From assembly GCA_017538795.1 (NCBI GenBank), contig JAFYIE010000047.1:1-64000 (forward strand): a stretch of DNA of 64,000 bases, in the 5' to 3' direction. The stretch is from Bacteroidales bacterium (GTDB lineage Bacteria; Bacteroidota; Bacteroidia; Bacteroidales; F082). Position numbers and translations under genes: made by a program. Below the pieces are notes generated by a model. That model was not told where the DNA came from. It worked only from the letters and a program-made list of their open reading frames with translations, and did not search any database. This document shows positions 2,167 through 14,729 of this stretch, piece by piece; the first letter of the stretch is position 1; each line of letters starts with the position of its first letter.

Positions 2167-2922
2167 TTAAATATGCTCCTCCACCCCACGGAAATGCACG
2201 TTGAGCTCGTGGAGGTGCTCCAGCAATGTTCCAAGAGGTGTGCCCTCTGTCATCTTGGCGAAAGCATTGACATCCTTGGGGAAGCACTTGCCACCATATC
2301 CGTACTTACCATCTGGTCCTGGGACGTAGGTATGGGTGTCGTTGATATAACCAGAGAGCAACACGCCTGTATGAACCTTGCGCCAGTCGGCACCCATCTG
2401 CTCGCAATACTCACGACAGGCGTTGAAGTAGGTGACCTTGTAGGCGCCGAACACATTGTGCATGTACTTGGTAAGTTCAGCCTCGAGAGGAGTCATCACC
2501 GTGAACTTCTTGCCCACAAAAATCTTGGTCAGCAACTCATGGGCACCAGTGAAGACCATTGTCTGCTTCTTAAAGTCTTCAATATGAGTACGTTCCGTAA
2601 GAAATTCTGGCATGTAGCACACCTGATGTCCAGTTTCTTTTGAAAGTCTATCACTTGTTCCTGGAAGAATGGTCGTACGGACAAACACTGGTACATCAGG
2701 GAGCTTTTTAATCAACTCGGTCATCAAGCGCAGATCTTGTGTGCCATCGTCCTCAGTAGGAACATGTATCTGCAAGAAAGCAATATCAACTTTGCTCAAA
2801 TCATCATTATATCCCTTAGGAGGGTCGCTAATGAAAAGCTTGCACTCTGGGTTGTTATGTTCCAACCAATCTTTAAGGGCTCCACCCACGAAGCCACATC
2901 CGATAATTCCAACGTTAATCAT
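2167..2922 (-). CDS. Short UDP-glucose/GDP-mannose dehydrogenase-like protein, copy A
   Basis: The 251 residues begin with a Rossmann NAD loop ([10 protein letters not shown], 5-14) and end shortly after the nucleotide-sugar dehydrogenase active-site block [10 protein letters not shown], with the presumed nucleophile Cys213. The family normally exceeds 380 residues, so the C-terminal UDP-binding domain is absent. This is a stable short form rather than a broken gene, because a second intact copy of identical length lies at 13974-14729 with only about 21 amino-acid differences by my count. Its role is presumably sugar-nucleotide oxidation for the surface polysaccharide, but without the UDP-binding domain the substrate is uncertain. 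It is the downstream border of an 11-kb accessory insert. Confidence 0.82.
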   Translation of the reverse strand: MINVGIIGCGFVGGALKDWLEHNNPECKLFISDPPKGYNDDLSKVDIAFLQIHVPTEDDGTQDLRLMTELIKKLPDVPVFVRTTILPGTSDRLSKETGHQVCYMPEFLTERTHIEDFKKQTMVFTGAHELLTKIFVGKKFTVMTPLEAELTKYMHNVFGAYKVTYFNACREYCEQMGADWRKVHTGVLLSGYINDTHTYVPGPDGKYGYGGKCFPKDVNAFAKMTEGTPLGTLLEHLHELNVHFRGVEEHI

Positions 2923-3002
2923 TTTGTATATATTTTAAACTTTTAATTATTACTACACAAATTTATAAATTTCAAAAAAATCCAATTATAATTTTAATAC
3001 GT

Positions 3003-4580
3003 TTAATATTTGTATTGTTGCAGCAAACAATAAACAAGTTTCACATACTTGCGAAAGGTGTTCCGAAACATTAAACTCGACATATAGTTGTAATCATTTT
3101 CTATCTCTCCAGATAAGCAATCTATTTCTACAACCATGATCCCGTCATATGAAAAGCAATACATAGCCAAATTATCATCCGAAGCTCTTTTTGAGACCAT
3201 CCACCTAATGGTATCCTCGGACCAAACACCATTTTCATAAATACGGCCAGACCATTGTTTCTTCTCCATGTCCAATCTCCCATCCCTTATTTTATTGTCA
3301 TTGTTTTCATTATATAGCCAAGCCACCTTAGGATTGTCCAAAAATAAGGAATTGTTTTCGTTATTCACCCCAGGCCACAAAAAGAACAAACGATGTTTAG
3401 CTACATGGCCAACACAATATGTGCTAGGTATAACATCTGAAAAAACATAATCATCAATATTATAAAAAACTCTATACAAAGAATCATTTGAATTAGCACC
3501 TCTCAACCAAATTTTCACTCCTTTGTACGAATACAAATCACCAAAATAATAATCAGATATTTCGTCCAACAATTGATACAATTCAACATCTGTCCTTACA
3601 CTATCCAAATTTATATTATCCCATATGTAGTCGCCTCTTTCGTTTTCATATTTGTAAACATCATACTGCAACTCCTTCGTCCATTTATTATAGTCGTCTC
3701 CTCTTTGAGATGATAATAGAAATATACCTATTCCCACAAGTGCAGCCAACAATAATAATAACAAAACTCCACACGTTCTATGAAAAGCATTACCCAAGTC
3801 GAATTGCATCCTGCTTCTAGAATATCCACGAACAATCAGATGATGAGCACAATTACCAAGTTGATCTTGGCCAATCTCCTCAAAATGCAATTTGAATTGC
3901 AAGTTGTTTCCGGCCTTTACGTAACCTATGGGAACTTCTCGTTTAACATTGGAGAATTCATCAATAACCGTTCTCAACTCTTTTAATTGAGCATCATTGT
4001 CGGCTACGGTGCCTATAATAAAGATTACGCCACTCAATTCATGGATATTAAGCAGTTTTTTCAAATCAAACGAGAGTTTTCCGTCCTTCTTTCTTCTATA
4101 ACCCGAGACAACTTCAACAACAATTTTATTACTTCTAGAATAGCTTTCTCTAATAATTTCCGACGATTGCTTAACTTCATCACAATCATCCATTTCAACA
4201 ACCGCAAATCTTATTCTCTGACTATTAGCATTGAGGATGCGAGCTGGTATCTTATTGAAAAACACCTGCCAAAACATTGCTGGAGGAATAATGTTTTCAA
4301 TTGAATCATTATTAAGAGAATTGTATGCTTTAACCGCAAAAACCACAAAAGAAACGATGCTCAGTAGCAGCGCAAGCCACGTCCACAAATAATTGTTTTT
4401 TGCAATCAGAAATGCCACCGAACTCACAAACACAATAATTATTGAAAAGAAAAGGAAATAACCTGAGATTTTCTTTCTCATCTTATTTTTTAACCTCTTG
4501 TAATCAAGAGTTAAAACAGCAATGATGCATGCCAATATAGTACACACTTTAACAATAAAATCAAAATATTTCATTATCAT
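3003..4580 (-). CDS. Large membrane protein of unknown function (accessory cassette)
   Basis: I do not recognise this 525-residue protein. Hydrophobic segments lie near 7-25, 41-60, 65-84 and 270-289. The basic loop KRLKNKMRKK (28-37) suggests that the loop after segment 1 is cytoplasmic. That would put the alpha/beta-looking domain at about 120-265 (alternating strands such as RFAVVEM and GVIFIIGTVAD) in the cytosol, and the 235-residue Trp/Tyr/Asn-rich tail outside. A sensor or effector with two soluble halves is possible. It is the last gene of a same-strand set with DUF4062, TIR and small membrane proteins; the gap to the DUF4062 gene is 145 nt. A second in-frame ATG lies two codons downstream of the first. 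Confidence 0.6.
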   Translation of the reverse strand: MIMKYFDFIVKVCTILACIIAVLTLDYKRLKNKMRKKISGYFLFFSIIIVFVSSVAFLIAKNNYLWTWLALLLSIVSFVVFAVKAYNSLNNDSIENIIPPAMFWQVFFNKIPARILNANSQRIRFAVVEMDDCDEVKQSSEIIRESYSRSNKIVVEVVSGYRRKKDGKLSFDLKKLLNIHELSGVIFIIGTVADNDAQLKELRTVIDEFSNVKREVPIGYVKAGNNLQFKLHFEEIGQDQLGNCAHHLIVRGYSRSRMQFDLGNAFHRTCGVLLLLLLAALVGIGIFLLSSQRGDDYNKWTKELQYDVYKYENERGDYIWDNINLDSVRTDVELYQLLDEISDYYFGDLYSYKGVKIWLRGANSNDSLYRVFYNIDDYVFSDVIPSTYCVGHVAKHRLFFLWPGVNNENNSLFLDNPKVAWLYNENNDNKIRDGRLDMEKKQWSGRIYENGVWSEDTIRWMVSKRASDDNLAMYCFSYDGIMVVEIDCLSGEIENDYNYMSSLMFRNTFRKYVKLVYCLLQQYKY

Positions 4581-4725
4581 AAATCGATTGTTGTTTAAAA
4601 CACTTTACTCTAACAAATACTATTACTTTAAAGAGTTGTCTCCTTCTTAGTTCTTGAACTCTTTCATCAAAGAACACTTCTTAATATCCTTGGATCATGT
4701 GCCAAAGGCGAGCATGATTTTTTCA

Positions 4726-5700
4726 TCAACAATTATGTTTTAATTCATTAAATCTATTATCAAACCAATTAAACCAGACTTTAACAAAACTTTTATCCTT
4801 TATCAATATGGCTTCGTATAATTCTGGAGTAGGCAAGGCGATAATCAATTCTTTGTCACTAAGACCAAATACTCTAATTGTATTCAACTCAGAAGCATAC
4901 CATTCTACTCCTGGGATATTCCTTAGTATTGATACAAAATCTTCAAACTGAGGAGAATGTTTATTTGCAATAATACGGATACTAACGCCATTATTAAGAA
5001 GCATCTTGAATCTGTTTGAAAATGATTTCGGATATGCTGTATGTCCAACACCCTGAGCCCAAATTATGTCCCCTGATTTTGCCTCATCCATGATAATATT
5101 GAAATAATCCATCATCAGTTCTCGTTTACGAAAAATCGTAAACTTAGCCCCTTGATACAATGTGGTTCTCTTATTTGCTTCATTTAAGTACAACTTAAAC
5201 AATCCAGACAATTGTACTAATAATTGTTCTTTGATATCTTTGACCGTATTGAAACCACATATGAAATTATTAATTTCACGTGAGTACAAATAATCTAAAA
5301 AATAAAAAGTCTCAACACTATCAACCGTAATATACTTAATCCTTTTACTTTTTTTATTATTTTTATAAGTATTATATTCTGTTAATACGTCATGATGAGC
5401 AAACAGAAAGACTTTTTTCCCTTTCTCAATAGCAGTTCTAATCTCGTCTTGAGTTACGGAAGCGCCACCTTTTGTTGACCTACTCCCAAGTCTTTTTCCA
5501 ATTACACCAATTAAAATATCAATATTGTCCAATGATTCATAAATATATCTATCCAACGATTCCTTACTTCCATACGCAATGTCCCCTCTCTCATGAAGAT
5601 AAGCCTCATGACCCAAACTTTTCAAAAAGTCAGCGATATCTTCTCGTTCTTGTTTTAGATCAATATATGTTGAACTAATAAAAAAAACAATTTTGGCCAT
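4726..5700 (-). CDS. DUF4062-domain protein with PLD-like C-terminal half
   Basis: The first 110 residues match the DUF4062 pattern: FFISSTYIDLKQERED near the N-terminus, a central LDNIDILIGVIGKRLGS strand, and SVTQDEIRTAIEKGKKVFLF. DUF4062 is a TIR/SLOG-like alpha/beta fold that recurs in STAND-type and defence proteins. The last 130 residues (GDIIWAQGVGHT, LNNGVSIRIIANKHSP, WYASELNTIRVFGLSDKELIIAL) resemble the phospholipase-D-like fold found in TrmB-type sensors. No HxK motif is seen, so this half is probably a ligand-binding or assembly domain. It lies 67 nt downstream of the TIR gene on the same strand. A role as sensor in a small immune-like operon is inference. Confidence 0.7.
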   Translation of the reverse strand: MAKIVFFISSTYIDLKQEREDIADFLKSLGHEAYLHERGDIAYGSKESLDRYIYESLDNIDILIGVIGKRLGSRSTKGGASVTQDEIRTAIEKGKKVFLFAHHDVLTEYNTYKNNKKSKRIKYITVDSVETFYFLDYLYSREINNFICGFNTVKDIKEQLLVQLSGLFKLYLNEANKRTTLYQGAKFTIFRKRELMMDYFNIIMDEAKSGDIIWAQGVGHTAYPKSFSNRFKMLLNNGVSIRIIANKHSPQFEDFVSILRNIPGVEWYASELNTIRVFGLSDKELIIALPTPELYEAILIKDKSFVKVWFNWFDNRFNELKHNC

Positions 5701-5767
5701 ATTTTATTTTCTACTTTGATATTCAGGGCATCAAAAACCTCAACTATTGATTTGAACACCGTCATTA

Positions 5768-6568
5768 TTAGTATAAACCAGCGTATCGTCTGAGCAACAA
5801 CTTCCTTTTATACAGAACATCCAGCGAACCCAGACCAGAATGATTTCTCATGGTTGACAGATCTAAACTGTCAATTTGCTTAAATTTAGTCGTGTCAAGC
5901 GGATGCGTCATCTGCAAGGAATCCGTGACCGATTCATTTAAAACCATAGACTCCGTACCAACCGAGAAGTACCTAGTTTTGGGGAACCTTGAAGGTATTT
6001 TGTGTGGCAGTTTTCCCATATACCCCACCTCCTCATAAATCCATGGAGACAGGGAACTCTTTTCAATACCTTCTTTTAGTGTCACTGAATTGGCAGACTC
6101 AATCAATATCGGACATTCTATCTCATCAATCGCTTCGAAGAGTGCCATCGTCAACATGGCATAAACATGAGCGGTTGACTGGTTTCTTCTATCGTAATCG
6201 TATGATGTTGTTCCAACTGGAATAGAAAATTTCCTATCCAACTCCTTTAATAAAACAAAAGCGTTTGACCAAACATCCGCATCGATAAAACAATCAAGAT
6301 TGCAGTACACCTTGAACCACGCTTTAAGATAACGGGCTAATTCGATATCATTATGAGAATGCGACAGGAAAACCTGATACTTCCCCTGAGGAAACCACAA
6401 CTCCTTCAGCGTTTTGCCATTAATCAAGCCATCGGTGGATGAAAGATACGATCTCAACTGCGATTTCCTTAACAAATCGTCTTGATCCTCTTTAGTACTA
6501 ATACTAGTACCAGTTGTCCTTTGCAACTGTGTGATTACACTCGACTTTATAATAAACGGATAAAACAT
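5768..6568 (-). CDS. TIR-like domain protein
   Basis: The start is set at the ATG 6566-6568, two nucleotides after the stop of the upstream membrane gene; a longer frame would overlap that gene by 85 nt. In the resulting 266 residues a TIR core spans about 64-185. It begins KYQVFLSHSHNDIELARYL, continues CFIDADVW, then a CPILIE strand, then SPWIYEEVGY, where Glu180 (or 179) lines up with the catalytic Glu of NAD-cleaving TIR domains. Bacterial TIR effectors hydrolyse NAD or make signalling nucleotides. The tail (186-266) is Ser/Leu-rich and unassigned. Tight coupling to a three-segment membrane protein and a nearby DUF4062 gene suggests a multi-gene defence module. Confidence 0.68.
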   Translation of the reverse strand: MFYPFIIKSSVITQLQRTTGTSISTKEDQDDLLRKSQLRSYLSSTDGLINGKTLKELWFPQGKYQVFLSHSHNDIELARYLKAWFKVYCNLDCFIDADVWSNAFVLLKELDRKFSIPVGTTSYDYDRRNQSTAHVYAMLTMALFEAIDEIECPILIESANSVTLKEGIEKSSLSPWIYEEVGYMGKLPHKIPSRFPKTRYFSVGTESMVLNESVTDSLQMTHPLDTTKFKQIDSLDLSTMRNHSGLGSLDVLYKRKLLLRRYAGLY

Positions 6569-6570
6569 AT

Positions 6571-7062
6571 TTATGAAATATTTAACACCATAACAATAAT
6601 CAGCACCACAACCAACACAGTAATATAGAAAGGCCTTATAGATTTCGACTTCCAACAGCCACTGGTTGACACATAACCCAATTTGATTTCCTCTTGAGTG
6701 ACTTCCCTGTCAATCGTATATGGGCGAAAATTATACAATGCACATTTATAATGATGCGGTTTACAATCTGTGAAACAAGTATTGAGAAATTCACGTTGAC
6801 GATTCCTAAAACCTCTTTCCAACCTCAAATAAAAGGCATCCAAATACCAAAACAGGAATATCGGGAAGAGCGTTAGCAGAAGCCACCATTTAATGTCACC
6901 AAGGCTACAGCTTACGGCGAACAATGCCACAACAATCATCACCAACCAATTCTTACAATTAGCGCTGTTGGATGACATCCGCGCAATATTGTCCTGCATC
7001 ATCTGGAGGTACTGACGCTCATCATCGTTGAAAATATTGGACTTTTCAATATTTGTGCTCAT
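6571..7062 (-). CDS. Small three-segment membrane protein upstream of the TIR gene
   Basis: The protein has 163 residues. A soluble helix (about 10-38, DDERQYLQMMQDNIARMSSNS) precedes two adjacent membrane segments (40-58 and 62-79), then a basic amphipathic stretch (RLERGFRNRQREF), a Cys-rich middle and a C-terminal membrane segment (143-162). The build recalls SLATT-type effector or partner proteins that accompany TIR and other nucleotide-signal genes, though I cannot assign a family with certainty. It is the first gene of the cassette. The TIR gene starts 2 nt after its stop, so the two are very likely translated together and may interact at the membrane. Confidence 0.6.
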   Translation of the reverse strand: MSTNIEKSNIFNDDERQYLQMMQDNIARMSSNSANCKNWLVMIVVALFAVSCSLGDIKWWLLLTLFPIFLFWYLDAFYLRLERGFRNRQREFLNTCFTDCKPHHYKCALYNFRPYTIDREVTQEEIKLGYVSTSGCWKSKSIRPFYITVLVVVLIIVMVLNIS

Positions 7063-7070
7063 TTTTTCAT

Positions 7071-7108
7071 GACTTTAAAAATCCACCCACAAAGCCGCAT
7101 CCGATAAT
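7071..7108 (-). pseudogene. Remnant of the 5' end of a third short dehydrogenase-like gene
   Basis: Bases 7082-7108 match the coding start of copy A (2881-2907) at 25 of 27 positions. Read on the minus strand they encode IIGCGFVGG, the Rossmann loop of copies A and B. Both differences from copy A are synonymous third-codon changes (TGC/TGT and TTT/TTC), so the fragment derives from a once-functional allele. Similarity falls away just before the ATG side and soon after GG. It sits exactly between the TIR cassette (which starts at 7062) and the PD-(D/E)XK gene (which ends at 7184). Confidence 0.75.
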
Positions 7109-7183
7109 CTTCGCTCTCTCTTAGTTCCAACTCCTCCTCCATCCTTCGAACTTTATTCGAACTTGGTACGAATATGGCCATAA

Positions 7184-8737
7184 TCATCTCTCCACTAAAT
7201 ACTCTTCTATATTATTTGTTTCGGATGAAAAATTAACTCCTATCTTTATCAGAGTTTGGTCGTTTAAAGAAAACGGCAAAAGATATTCTTTCTCATTTAT
7301 CTGATTTAACGCCTCCTCTGCCGAACGGTCAAATTTAAACTCAAACAAATAAAGGTATTCTTTTGTTCGCACCATCATGTCAATTCTGCCATTCGAAGTC
7401 TTGTATTCGGCTTCAACAATATATCCCAACAATTTGCTGACAATGAAAACAACGTTCTGATAATGGTTTTCCAAATTCTTTATTAAATCGTAAGGCGTAC
7501 CGGCAAACATCACCTTCATACGTTCCATGAATGAATCAATCGCGCCGGTTCTCAAGTCATTTACAAAACGCTCAACAAAAAAAGCCGATTTGTTTTCATC
7601 AACCTTCATATACTGCGGCAGCAGATAGTTCATAAAACTTTTCTCAACCTCACGATTAGGAAAACCCAAACGATAGTTGCCAAACTCCTTATCGAAACCT
7701 TTAATCGTCAGATATCCTGTTTGATAAAACAAAGCCGTAGGCTCATTGGCAATATTTTCCTTGCCCGATAGGCTCTGTGCCACTATCTCCGCATCTGAGA
7801 AGTCCTGCAAATGATAGTTGTAATTTTGCAACATGGTCAACAGAAACGACGGCGTGCCCGATTCGAACCAATAATTGTCTAAGCTTTGCTTGTCCAACGC
7901 ATTCAGCAAACTGAACGGATTGTAAATATCAACCGACAACTCTTTTGAGAAATGATATCCGTCGTACATCTCTCTCAAACTGTCGAGCATTTTCTCCTTA
8001 CTCAAACCCTCCTTCTCCGCAAACGCCTCCACATAAGGCATCAGCACGCCCTTGATTTCCTGCGATGTGATACCACATATTGCTTCATATCGTTCGTCTA
8101 ACGAAATATCCTGCAGATTATTCAAATCGCTGAAAATACTTACTCTCGAAAACTTTGTCACACCCGTAAGAAATGCGAATTTGATATATTCGTCGCAAGT
8201 CTTCAGCACCGAATAAACAGCTTTCAACAGCTGGCGGAAACGTTCCTGAAGAGCGTCATCGTCCAACGCATAAAGCAGAGGCTTGTCGTATTCATCAACC
8301 AATATCACCACCCTCGAACCCGTTTTCCGGGAAACACTCGTTATCAGATTTCTGAAACGCAACGAAAGATCATCTGTAATGCGCTCCACGCCGTACTGGT
8401 GTTCCCATTCGGAAAAATGATAAGAAAGCACATCACACAAGCCTTCGTAACTGTCATAGAAACCGGTGTTCAAATCCAGATGGAAAATCGGATATTTATC
8501 CCATTTTTTCTCCACTGATGAGATATATAGCCCTTCAAACAATTCACGTTTTCCTTCAAAATAAGCCTTGAATGTGGATAATAAGAGGCTTTTCCCAAAG
8601 CGGCGCGGACGCGACAGGAAATAGTAATTGCCTGAAGATATCAATCTGTTGACAAACTCCGTCTTATCAACATAGACAAAGTCGCCCTCTCTTATCTTCT
8701 CAAAACTCTGAATTCCTATCGGTAGCTTCTGTAGCAT
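7184..8737 (-). CDS. AAA-ATPase-like protein with C-terminal PD-(D/E)XK nuclease-like domain
   Basis: The family is very common in Bacteroidota (PF09820 followed by PF08011). The visible hallmarks are LPIGIQSFEKIREGDFVYVD at the N-terminus, a P-loop variant SRPRRFGKSLL, a Walker-B-like VVILVDEYDKPLL, and a C-terminal PD-(D/E)XK-type core with GRIDMMV followed by LFEFKFD. I chose ATG 8735-8737 (517 residues) because relatives begin close to LPIGIQ and the frame extended upstream starts with TTG. Biological function is unknown; members are often lineage-expanded and mobile, and a role in DNA or conflict biology is inferred only from the nuclease fold. It ends 76 nt from the dehydrogenase-like remnant. 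Confidence 0.85.
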   Translation of the reverse strand: MLQKLPIGIQSFEKIREGDFVYVDKTEFVNRLISSGNYYFLSRPRRFGKSLLLSTFKAYFEGKRELFEGLYISSVEKKWDKYPIFHLDLNTGFYDSYEGLCDVLSYHFSEWEHQYGVERITDDLSLRFRNLITSVSRKTGSRVVILVDEYDKPLLYALDDDALQERFRQLLKAVYSVLKTCDEYIKFAFLTGVTKFSRVSIFSDLNNLQDISLDERYEAICGITSQEIKGVLMPYVEAFAEKEGLSKEKMLDSLREMYDGYHFSKELSVDIYNPFSLLNALDKQSLDNYWFESGTPSFLLTMLQNYNYHLQDFSDAEIVAQSLSGKENIANEPTALFYQTGYLTIKGFDKEFGNYRLGFPNREVEKSFMNYLLPQYMKVDENKSAFFVERFVNDLRTGAIDSFMERMKVMFAGTPYDLIKNLENHYQNVVFIVSKLLGYIVEAEYKTSNGRIDMMVRTKEYLYLFEFKFDRSAEEALNQINEKEYLLPFSLNDQTLIKIGVNFSSETNNIEEYLVER

Positions 8738-8787
8738 TGGAGTAATTATTAAATTGTTTTCCGCTATCAATCTCTCTTAAAAATATC

Positions 8788-9327
8788 TTATTCAATCATC
8801 TTCTTCAACACATCAATATCAACCTCATATTGTTTATCTGCAAGATATGCAAGCACTTCTTGAAGCTTAGCCACTTCGGGCGACTGACGCAGTGCTTTAC
8901 ATAATTTCAGTATTCTTGGATCTTTTTGTGTTGATACACTATCTTTTGTTAGTTCAATCAGTTCGGCAAGGTCTGAGGGCAAATCAAAATCCTCCATCTT
9001 CATACCAATAGCCTCAACATTTGCCTTAATGAAAGTCTCCATGGCTTTATGATCCTGCCCTATTTTTATTACATAATGATGCTTGCTTTTATGCTTCAAA
9101 AACGTCAGGTTATCCGTTTGGCCTATTACTTCAAACCCCTCTATATAAGAAAGCTTTCTTTTGTCATTATCTATTATTCCAACAGCAAATGCATCCTTGT
9201 ATTTTCCTCTCTCCATCTCCCTTGCCACCTCATTGCAGCTATGTTTATGATTTACATTGGCATCAAGCAATGAGCTAACAAATGTCGAGTCAATATAACA
9301 CTCCGGCATAATCTCATTATACTTCAT
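8788..9327 (-). CDS. Possible TOPRIM-like partner of the upstream ATPase
   Basis: I do not recognise the family by name. The 179 residues have PECYIDS (Glu9) near the start and GIIDNDKRK (Asp53, Asp55) after a strand. This is the E ... DxD spacing of TOPRIM metal sites, such as those of OLD-type nucleases and the AriB half of PARIS systems. The C-terminal 70 residues are helical. The start overlaps the end of the ATPase gene by 11 nt, so the two are translationally coupled. An HNH motif, expected for Septu PtuB, is absent. A two-gene ATPase/nuclease defence unit is a reasonable hypothesis, not a demonstrated one. Confidence 0.5.
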   Translation of the reverse strand: MKYNEIMPECYIDSTFVSSLLDANVNHKHSCNEVAREMERGKYKDAFAVGIIDNDKRKLSYIEGFEVIGQTDNLTFLKHKSKHHYVIKIGQDHKAMETFIKANVEAIGMKMEDFDLPSDLAELIELTKDSVSTQKDPRILKLCKALRQSPEVAKLQEVLAYLADKQYEVDIDVLKKMIE

Positions 9328-10489
9328 CGCCCAGCCTTTCTATATTAAAGAATGCGTCAACACCACCTTCAAACATATCCTGCACGTCGGCCTCTGTTGC
9401 AGTTTTAACCTCCGACCCATTCTCCGCAGAGCGAATATAGAACAAACCAAAATCATACTGTTCTCTTTCCAACAGGACATCCAGAATATATGGACTATGA
9501 GTAGATATAAAGAGTGTATTGCCGTTTTGTTGCTTAATCTGGTTCAGAAGCGTCTTCATCAATATCTGCTGTGTCGGAGGAAACAGATTCTCTTCCGGTT
9601 CTTCCAGGAAAACCTCACAATGATGTATTTTTGATATATTAAGGAAGTTTTTCACCAACCATTCTGTCATTTCCGGATTGGTTATAATTTTTTTCTCCAG
9701 ATTCGTATCTTGATTAATAGCTCCGTATTTAGGATTCTTTATAAATGCCTTTCCTATGTTATTCTCATAGTAATCTACGAGCAAGTCAGCAAGATTTTCC
9801 ATTTCCGACTTATGCTTCACCGAGTTGTCTTCTCGCTCGCGATACTTTTTGCTGTTGATATTTACTAAATGAATATATAAAGGAATAAGTGATTGCAAAC
9901 CGCTTGATACATTTGTAAATGGCAGAACCTGGCCATCTTTTGTCCTGACAAAGTCTGTATCATTGCTTTCATCATAATGATATACTACATCAAGGTTAAG
10001 AATGTCCTTATCAACAACTGTTTTCCTGGCATCCGCCCAGTCTGCCATAAAATCTTGGATATTTTCGGCAACCGACTTCACCTCAAACCAGTTGGGAATA
10101 ACGGCAACCAGATTTCTTTCAGCAGGTATATAACTTACCTTGGGGCGTTTATACTCCCATCTGTCATTTTTCCACTCATACGAGAAGCCGTGTTCATTGT
10201 CATAAGAGAATTTTATGAAATCCGACTCATATCCTATATATGTATTCTCGTGTATATATCCATTCAAGCGATGGAAGTTCACCAGTTCTTCCAAAAACAC
10301 ACCTTTCTTCTCAAAGCGCCGCGCATTCTGTTCGATAGCTATGCGTTTCTCAACCCACGTGCAAAAGCATGACACTTTCAGAACACAGCTCTTACCAATG
10401 CTTTGCTCACCAATAACAACGTTGATATCCTTAAGCAAGATATCAGCCTTAGTTATCGGCCCAAGGTCGCGTATTATTATTCTCTTCAT
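9317..10489 (-). CDS. ABC/AAA_15-type ATPase (OLD/RecF-like)
   Basis: The 390-residue protein keeps every ABC-ATPase element: Walker A GEQSIGKS (27-34), an ABC-signature-like SSGLQS (195-200), Walker B with catalytic acids VFLEEPEE (293-300), and the H-loop STHSPYI (His331). The region between Walker A and the signature is only about 160 residues, so there is no long SMC coiled coil. Such stand-alone ATPases (AAA_15/AAA_21, PF13175/PF13304) form the sensor half of OLD, Septu, PARIS and related systems. The small downstream gene overlaps its 3' end by 11 nt. The ATPase assignment is secure; the defence role rests on context. Confidence 0.85.
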   Translation of the reverse strand: MKRIIIRDLGPITKADILLKDINVVIGEQSIGKSCVLKVSCFCTWVEKRIAIEQNARRFEKKGVFLEELVNFHRLNGYIHENTYIGYESDFIKFSYDNEHGFSYEWKNDRWEYKRPKVSYIPAERNLVAVIPNWFEVKSVAENIQDFMADWADARKTVVDKDILNLDVVYHYDESNDTDFVRTKDGQVLPFTNVSSGLQSLIPLYIHLVNINSKKYREREDNSVKHKSEMENLADLLVDYYENNIGKAFIKNPKYGAINQDTNLEKKIITNPEMTEWLVKNFLNISKIHHCEVFLEEPEENLFPPTQQILMKTLLNQIKQQNGNTLFISTHSPYILDVLLEREQYDFGLFYIRSAENGSEVKTATEADVQDMFEGGVDAFFNIERLGDEV

Positions 10490-13973: not shown

Positions 13974-14729
13974 TTATATATGTTCTTCTTCACCTCTGAA
14001 ATGTACATTCAGTTCATGCAGATGCTCCAAAAGTGTTCCAAGAGGCGTGCCTTCTGTCATCTTAGCGAAAGCATTCACATCCTTCGGGAAACACTTGCCA
14101 CCATAGCCGAACTTGCCATCCGGACCTGGCACATATGTATGAGTATCACTGATATAGCCTGAAAGAAGCACTCCCGTATGCACCTTGCGCCAGTCGGCAC
14201 CCATCTTCTCACAATACTCACGACAAGCGTTAAAATAGGTAACTTTGTAAGCGCCAAACACGTTGTGCATGTATTTTGTGAGCTCGGCCTCCAATGGCGA
14301 CATAATAGTGAACTTTTTACCAACAAAAATCTTGCCAAGAAGCTCGTGAGCACCAGTAAACACCATCGTCTGCTTTTTGAAATCCTCGATATATGTACGC
14401 TCGGTAAGGAATTCCGGCATGTAATACACCTTATGACCCGTCTCTTTTGTGAGCATTTCGCTAGATCCCGGGAGAATGGTAGTGCGGACAAACACCGGCA
14501 CATCAGGCAAGTTTTTAATCAGTTGCTTCATCAGCGTCAGATCCTGCGAACCGTCGTCCTCAGTAGGAACATGAATCTGCAAAAACGCAATGTCGATATT
14601 GCTCAAATCGTCATTATATCCCTTCGGCGGGTCGCTTATAAACAACTTGCACTCCGGATTGTTGTGCTCCAACCAATCTTTCAACGCTCCACCCACGAAG
14701 CCACAACCGATAATTCCAACATTAATCAT
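13974..14729 (-). CDS. Short UDP-glucose/GDP-mannose dehydrogenase-like protein, copy B
   Basis: This is a 251-residue twin of the gene at 2167-2922, with the same N-terminal loop, Cys213 in [10 protein letters not shown] and the same early end without a UDP-binding domain. By eye about 230 of 251 residues agree (21 substitutions), while DNA identity in a sampled stretch is nearer 80%. The duplication, or import of a second allele, is therefore not recent and both copies have been under protein-level selection. Its ATG overlaps the rfbA stop by 4 nt, which makes this copy the one still joined to the sugar-nucleotide operon. It forms the upstream border of the accessory insert. Confidence 0.85.

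What the first reader, a model, noticed from the sequence alone, without database searches (positions are those of the whole stretch)
3003..7062. Candidate new immune-like cassette: small membrane protein, TIR protein, DUF4062/PLD-like protein, large membrane protein
Four same-strand genes occupy one compartment of the island. The first two are coupled (2-nt gap). The second has a TIR core with SHSHND and WIYEEVGY (candidate catalytic Glu180), the third a DUF4062 domain plus a PLD-like half without HxK, the fourth two soluble halves around membrane helices. TIR with membrane partners recalls NAD-depleting abortive-infection systems, but this gene combination matches no named system I know (not Thoeris, CBASS or Pycsar).
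Basis: inference. Interest (0 to 1): 0.75.

Follow-up and report, generated by a model that had tools for sequence, protein, structure and literature searches.

The report
TIR plus tiny membrane effector pair
Two of the four genes form a widespread but barely described bacterial pair that looks antiphage, a TIR signalling enzyme with a tiny membrane protein, and the other two look like separate neighbours, so the candidate is a variant of the Thoeris family of defence systems rather than a new four-gene system.

Summary
The four minus-strand genes are real, but they do not look like one four-gene system. Genes 1 and 2 are a recurrent pair. Gene 2 is a ThsB-type TIR (PADLOC E 7.8e-49; Glu180 fixed in 36 aligned rows). 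Gene 1 is a three-helix membrane protein of PADLOC's candidate family PDC-M50A. Of the 80 best-scoring TIR relatives in species genomes, 54 have the small protein within 1 kb (a biased sample; median gap 7 bp); 11 have the TM-macro and 4 the SIR2 Thoeris effector. Trees put the window TIR with Bacteroidales TIRs that mostly neighbour TM-macro effectors (100/99 in a chosen 41-row set) and its small partner elsewhere (99/87): it looks like an effector swap. Gene 3 is a DUF4062 TIR-like protein that keeps the Glu aligned with Swarozyc's catalytic residue; gene 4 has no relatives found. In 98 relatives' loci DUF4062 was seen once, beside a TIR without the small protein, and gene 4 never. Best reading: a Thoeris-like second-messenger module with a minimal membrane effector. 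A December 2025 preprint on TIR signalling systems, not readable here, may already name it.

The parts
6571..7062 (-). Gene 1: small membrane protein (163 aa), candidate effector; PADLOC PDC-M50A family
   Evidence: PDC-M50A E 1.1e-23; model pLDDT 83.3, pTM 0.74, helices 13-54, 57-98, 143-162; adjacent to TIRs in 54 of 80 genome loci
5768..6568 (-). Gene 2: ThsB-type TIR protein (266 aa), candidate signal-making NAD enzyme; conserved Glu180
   Evidence: PADLOC ThsB PDLC00430 E 7.8e-49; E180 in 35 of 35 aligned relatives; 21 of 36 aligned members match Pfam TIR_2 at E<=0.01, the window member itself does not
4726..5700 (-). Gene 3: DUF4062 TIR-like protein with an unassigned C-terminal half; a neighbour, probably a separate Swarozyc-like defence gene
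   Evidence: PF13271 E 2.5e-14; aligns to KpSwz (PDB 10wc) over residues 6-104, E 0.0058, with Glu86 at the column taken for KpSwz E97
3003..4580 (-). Gene 4: membrane protein of unknown family, no relatives found
   Evidence: own genome only in 173 family genomes; none in plasmids or viral contigs
7082..7108 (-). 27-bp remnant of the start of the neighbouring sugar-nucleotide dehydrogenase gene, just upstream of gene 1
   Evidence: 93% identical to 2881-2907, E 1e-6 in a search of the first 20 kb
2881..2907 (-). Matching 27 bp in the intact copy of that gene; the two places bracket the four genes

Best explanation
Genes 1 and 2 are a two-gene, Thoeris-like abortive-infection module. The TIR (a ThsB) is switched on by a phage feature, converts NAD+ at Glu180 into an ADP-ribose-type signal, and the three-helix membrane protein acts as the effector: on receiving the signal it assembles in the inner membrane and breaks the membrane barrier, stopping the infected cell. 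The pair here is mosaic: a TIR from a clade whose Bacteroidales members mostly neighbour TM-macro (type II Thoeris) effectors, coupled to the small effector. Genes 3 and 4 are separate cargo in the same cassette; gene 3 is probably a stand-alone Swarozyc-like NADase. Shown here: the pairing, its spread, the family assignments, the conserved Glu, the discordant trees. Inferred: phage trigger, signal, membrane damage, defence.
For: ThsB and PDC-M50A profile matches. 54 of 80 species-genome relatives and 14 of 18 viral-contig relatives have the small protein within 1 kb; in the genome set the median gap is 7 bp and 52 of those 54 are on the same strand. All 7 other phylum genomes with a strong PDLC00430 match have it in the roughly 1.5-kb flanks held. 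Conversely, of 19 phylum loci found by the small protein, 8 (one the window's own) have this TIR family and 7 more have another TIR beside it; four of those seven match PADLOC ThsB models. The small protein thus takes the place that ThsA takes in Thoeris: one effector, varied TIRs. TIRs of the same family sit beside TM-macro (11 of 80), SIR2 (4 of 80) and, read by eye, caspase-like proteins (2 of 80), and beside a protein annotated as a CBASS phospholipase in two plasmids. Mosaic origin: (AU p about 1e-5 against grouping the window TIR with the TIRs of its small protein's kin).
Against: No known nucleotide-binding domain is recognisable in the small protein, so how it would read a signal is unknown. 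All 16 rows of the alignment used to rank the 80 loci came from loci with the small protein, so 54 of 80 is biased upward; the 19-locus search drew on the same genomes as and its profile on some of the same loci, so the two directions are not independent. Partner labels are clustered on the TIR tree (25 changes against 34.3 shuffled), so swaps are the exception. In the full 122-row quick tree the window TIR lies in no starred set. It is on a long branch and differs from the family at 10 of 48 near-fixed positions, so its activity might be altered. Only the window's genome of 173 in its family carries this TIR. No structure of the TIR was obtained. Nothing was tested in cells.
Confidence: 0.68

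Rival explanations
1. The TIR itself kills by draining NAD+, and the small membrane protein is its anchor, sensor or brake, not an effector that reads a signal.
For: No ligand-binding domain is recognised in the small protein. Its conserved charged residues R28, K37 and E82 lie in the two long helices at or near the ends of the hydrophobic stretches, which would also suit a protein-protein contact.
Against: The same small family pairs with several TIR families, and the same TIR family pairs with several unrelated proteins; such exchange is easier to explain by a diffusible signal than by a dedicated contact.
Confidence: 0.2
2. All four genes are one system.
For: They lie in one block bracketed by a 27-bp repeat of the dehydrogenase gene start, on one strand, with no terminator-like site found in 2900-7300.
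Against: A DUF4062 profile found a match in 1 of 98 relatives' loci, a viral contig whose TIR has no small partner; gene 4 relatives were not found in any search made. Pairs without genes 3 and 4 are common. Gaps of 67 and 145 nt separate genes 2/3 and 3/4. Limits: the DUF4062 profile had 7 rows, and many loci were cut by contig ends.
Confidence: 0.08
3. The window pair is a degenerate or recently mis-joined remnant without activity.
For: Long branches for both proteins; 10 of 48 near-fixed TIR positions changed.
Against: Both frames are intact; 38 of 48 near-fixed TIR positions, E180 among them, and 15 of 18 in the small protein are kept.
Confidence: 0.1

Closest known systems
Thoeris type II (ThsB TIR + TM-macro ThsA)
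   Same: Same TIR (ThsB) family; four of the five TIRs grouped with the window's carry a TM-macro label, and the L027 protein matches PADLOC ThsA; a membrane effector with the TIR gene next to it
   Different: No macro domain found; the effector is 163 aa, three helices, no recognisable sensor domain
PADLOC candidate PDC-M50 (PDC-M50A + PDC-M50B)
   Same: Gene 1 is PDC-M50A; the B model matches ThsB-like TIRs beside the small protein in related loci ('DUF1863-type' is my recalled label)
   Different: The window TIR is another ThsB family (PDLC00430) and does not match PDC-M50B at E<=1
TIR with transmembrane proteins of P2-like phage AC1 (PMC9122126, passages read; the name 2TM-1TM-TIR is recalled)
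   Same: A TIR that the authors think activates membrane proteins; protects E. coli C
   Different: Three genes. I could not fetch its sequence; no PADLOC model of such a system was listed for genes 1-4, and whether the library holds one was not checked
Swarozyc (DUF4062; PMC13174449, abstract, first part of the text and passages read) for gene 3 only
   Same: DUF4062 with the aligned Glu
   Different: Only residues 6-104 align to KpSwz; the C-terminal half is different or too far away to align

Membership tests
Thoeris | ThsB: a TIR protein of the ThsB families | tested here: met
   PDLC00430 E 7.8e-49
Thoeris | ThsA effector (SIR2-SLOG or TM-macro) beside it | tested here: not met
   no ThsA, SIR2 or macro match among the 10 proteins in each scan (for the gene at 9317-10489 only the best 25 of 77 PADLOC matches were shown); the rest of the genome was not searched for ThsA
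Thoeris | NAD+-derived signal joins TIR and effector | not testable with these tools
   needs biochemistry
Thoeris | Protection against phage | not testable with these tools
   needs plating
PDC-M50 (PADLOC candidate) | PDC-M50A protein | tested here: met
   E 1.1e-23; 35 of 35 aligned small proteins match
PDC-M50 (PADLOC candidate) | PDC-M50B protein | tested here: not met
   not among matches of genes 1-4 at E<=1; matched by TIRs of related loci. PADLOC's own system rule was not seen
2TM-1TM-TIR | A TIR with two separate membrane proteins in one operon | tested here: inconclusive
   one small membrane protein beside the TIR plus a larger one two genes away; AC1 sequence not obtained (one search gives only a sample number)
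CBASS / Pycsar | A nucleotide cyclase gene | tested here: not met
   no cyclase among the matches listed for the 10 proteins in each scan; for the gene at 9317-10489 only the best 25 of 77 PADLOC matches were shown
Swarozyc (gene 3) | DUF4062 with catalytic Glu | tested here: met
   (Glu86); that the aligned Ala is the mutated E97 is inferred from the preprint's construct name
Swarozyc (gene 3) | C-terminal auxiliary domain that binds the phage portal | tested here: inconclusive
   no alignment beyond residue 104

The most novel reading that the evidence does not exclude
The small three-helix protein is a stand-alone membrane receptor-effector for an ADP-ribose-type signal: it reads, with no macro or SLOG domain, the signal of ThsB enzymes that elsewhere serve macro-domain effectors, and TIR families and effectors are exchanged around it. 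The window would be a natural swap that joins a ThsB of a macro-associated clade to this effector.
Probability: 0.3. Interest if true: 0.75.

Novelty: new variant of a known kind. Interest (0 to 1): 0.55.

Why it matters
In the (biased) sample searched, the commonest partner of this ThsB family is not one of the studied Thoeris effectors but a protein of about 140 residues for which I found no Pfam or NCBIfam family. If it is the effector, it would be among the smallest signal-gated membrane effectors in bacterial immunity, and natural swaps such as this one make a direct test possible: does one TIR product open both a macro-domain effector and this one?

Tried and rejected
Single-sequence scans with the window TIR found no relative by tblastn in genome contigs or viral contigs; the 16-row alignment A1 did. 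The four-gene idea was tested by looking for DUF4062 and gene 4 in the TIR loci and dropped. The PLD-like reading of the C-terminal half of gene 3 could not be confirmed: Pfam gave nothing; the one other hit among 149 genomes is a chance match to a protein that by eye looks DUF262-like. A sequence comparison of the TIR alignment with solved structures gave only weak matches: best E 0.045 to a 'putative uncharacterized protein' (4lzp), TIR entries at 0.19, 0.27 and 0.97, and unrelated proteins (Vav, a TENA/THI-4 protein) at 0.18-0.34 among them. Structure prediction of the TIR was never accepted, nor was a fold search with the small-protein model. Pfam matches of the small proteins are weak and scattered (DUF3278 in 9 of 35, best E 5e-4). 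Literature: 0 papers hold 'PDC-M50'; two searches for Thoeris types III and V to VIII found one passing mention of type III and one preprint naming type VI. The preprint most likely to describe this pair (Yirmiya et al., doi 10.64898/2025.12.03.692087) is not held; I saw only its title in reference lists. The paper on 12 E. coli TIR systems (PMC11350192) is not held either.

Full report
Observation. The window is a contig stretch of a 2.48-Mb draft genome; an elongation factor G2 model named for Bacteroidota passes its cut-off, so I take the host as Bacteroidota. The four minus-strand genes are present as described. Scans gave: gene 1, PADLOC PDC-M50A; gene 2, PADLOC ThsB and no Pfam match; gene 3, Pfam DUF4062; gene 4, nothing above a cut-off (best: Tetraspanin, E 8.2e-5, 22.8 bits against a cut-off of 32.1). 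NCBIfam names none of the four.

The pair. The TIR is rare in its own taxonomic family (1 of 173 genomes at E<=1e-10). With PADLOC's ThsB model PDLC00430, 11 of 395 genomes drawn from the phylum match at E<=1e-5; three of these are weak and partial, one is the window's own, and the other seven all have the small protein within the roughly 1.5-kb flanks held. In plasmids 119 records and in phages 3 records have a TIR relative. I opened 14 of these regions, chosen from the listings and so not a random draw; by profile 9 of 14 hold the small protein, among them a 5.2-kb Psychrobacter plasmid, a Vibrio phage where the depositors noted 'ThsB' for the TIR, and E. coli plasmid pECO-816c. In the Klebsiella copy the small gene runs into an IS3 element; in the Erwinia copy an IS91 transposase lies between the two. 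The five without: Moraxella (SIR2 protein), one Priestia (macro protein), one Levilactobacillus (cut at the record start), Cupriavidus and an E. coli IncHI plasmid (both beside a protein annotated as a CBASS phospholipase; in the last only five proteins were compared with the small-protein profile).

Larger sample. A scan of species genomes with alignment A1 found 184 relatives and kept the best 80. The small protein lies within 1 kb in 54 of 80 (52 on the same strand, 15 overlapping, median gap 7 bp); 11 have a TM-macro protein, 4 a SIR2 protein (one of them with the small protein at 1-3 kb), and 11 have none of these, 4 of them cut by a contig end. In 18 viral contigs the numbers are 14 small, 1 macro and 3 none, some of the small matches weak. 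Bias: all 16 rows of A1 came from loci that hold the small protein. In the other direction, the small-protein profile A2 matched 19 of 395 genomes; 8 of the 19 loci, the window's own among them, have this TIR family, 7 more have a TIR of another kind (three of these, L135, L137 and L138, read by eye only, and L135 had no PADLOC match), and in 4 I saw no such TIR. The other seven of the 8 are the same genomes as, and A2 was built partly from them, so this is not an independent count; the 7 with other TIRs are new. Where titles name the organism, pairs occur in Bacteroidota, Bacillota, Pseudomonadota, Planctomycetota, Cyanobacteriota and Mycoplasmatota, some of them in metagenome bins.

Effector exchange. 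On a tree of 122 TIRs the partner labels small, macro, SIR2 and caspase-like need 13 changes. The five labels with 'other' need 25 against a shuffled mean of 34.3, as low in 0 of 200 shuffles, so partners are mostly inherited and swapped at times. One starred pair of close TIRs has SIR2 in one and the small protein in the other (L071, L077). The window TIR falls with five Bacteroidales TIRs (L027, L028, L032, L034, L048): in the 122-row quick tree without a starred branch (94, and 83 with one viral row added), and at 100/99 in a careful tree of 41 rows that I picked. Four of the five carry the macro label; L048 shows neither effector in the stretch held, which ends about 0.45 kb past the TIR. 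The window small protein is sister to ten small proteins that include those of Prevotella histicola, Prevotella sp. HJM029 and Porphyromonas somerae (99/87, 95-row tree). Holding the window TIR together with the TIRs of those three is rejected (AU p 1.05e-5), and with a wider set too (1.26e-5). Cautions: the groups were named after the trees were seen, the window's branches are long, the small-protein tree has few columns, and the bootstraps had not settled.

Anatomy. The small-protein model is good over its helices (pLDDT 83.3, pTM 0.74): two 42-residue helices, 13-54 and 57-98, joined by a short turn, and a last helix 143-162; the stretch between is uncertain. Columns fixed in all 35 rows are I26, R28, K37, E82 and Y146, R-M-x-x-N-S-x-x-x-K being the clearest motif. 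In the TIR the motifs FxSHSHxD, FxD, YxY..RN, SPW and E180 stand out; of 48 positions shared by at least 32 of 35 relatives the window keeps 38 and differs at 10. Of the 36 aligned TIRs, 21 match Pfam TIR_2 at E<=0.01, the window one not. TIR identity therefore rests on sequence profiles, not on a model.

Genes 3 and 4. A 2026 preprint (PMC13174449; abstract and first part of the text read; passages) shows that DUF4062 is a TIR-like NADase in a portal-triggered defence called Swarozyc. Gene 3 aligns with its solved protein over residues 6-104 (E 0.0058); Glu86 of gene 3 falls on an Ala of that chain, which I take to be the mutated catalytic E97 from the preprint's construct name. A DUF4062 profile of 7 rows matched in 1 of 98 relatives' loci. 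Relatives of gene 3 were found in 4 of 173 and 9 of 385 genomes at E<=1e-6, own included. Gene 4 has no relative in 173 genomes, in plasmids or in viral contigs.

How the block came in. The four genes lie between an intact 251-aa dehydrogenase-like gene (2167-2922) and a 27-bp remnant of that gene's start (7082-7108); a second intact copy lies at 13974-14729, next to rmlA. Insertion or exchange of a cassette at this gene is the simple reading; it says the four genes may have travelled together, not that they work together.

What is known. Type I and II Thoeris use SIR2-SLOG and TM-macro effectors; type IV uses a caspase-like protease (PMC11204291, PMC12847820, PMC12948488, passages read). Type VI is named in PMC13232231 (passages). 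PADLOC's model names imply that its makers already saw PDC-M50A with a ThsB-like TIR as a candidate; its system rule was not seen. I therefore call this a new variant of a known kind, with the open chance that the unread preprint has already described it.

Noticed in passing
window 2167-2922, 7082-7108, 13974-14729; L191-L205: A 251-aa sugar-nucleotide-dehydrogenase-like gene is duplicated and flanks cargo; 29 of 99 genomes of the genus, own included, have a match at E<=1e-60. Of 15 regions from 14 genomes that I opened, several have genes just upstream that look defence-like by eye (SEFIR/TIR-like in L191, ATPases in L193, zeta-toxin-like with an ATPase in L203, a metallophosphatase fusion in L205), others have only polysaccharide genes. 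It may be a cargo hotspot in a polysaccharide locus.
   Followed up: partly
window 9317-10489 with 8788-9327: An AAA_15 ATPase with a strong match to PADLOC candidate PDC-M29A (E 6.5e-56), next to a small gene of unknown family: perhaps a second defence pair in the island.
   Followed up: no
L207 (E. coli plasmid, 2929-3756) and L025 (Cupriavidus plasmid): The same TIR family sits beside a protein annotated as a CBASS phospholipase, with other TIR genes close by (four more in L207, one in L025) and no cyclase annotated in the stretch: a possible further effector type for these TIRs.
   Followed up: no
L042, L076: The same TIR family beside caspase-like proteins, as in type IV Thoeris (read by eye).
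   Followed up: no
L135, L137, L138: The small protein beside a FISHST-type protein of over 440 aa; the one scanned (L135) has no PADLOC match.
   Followed up: no
window 7184-8770: AAA-ATPase_like/PDDEXK_9 gene directly upstream of the cassette.
   Followed up: no
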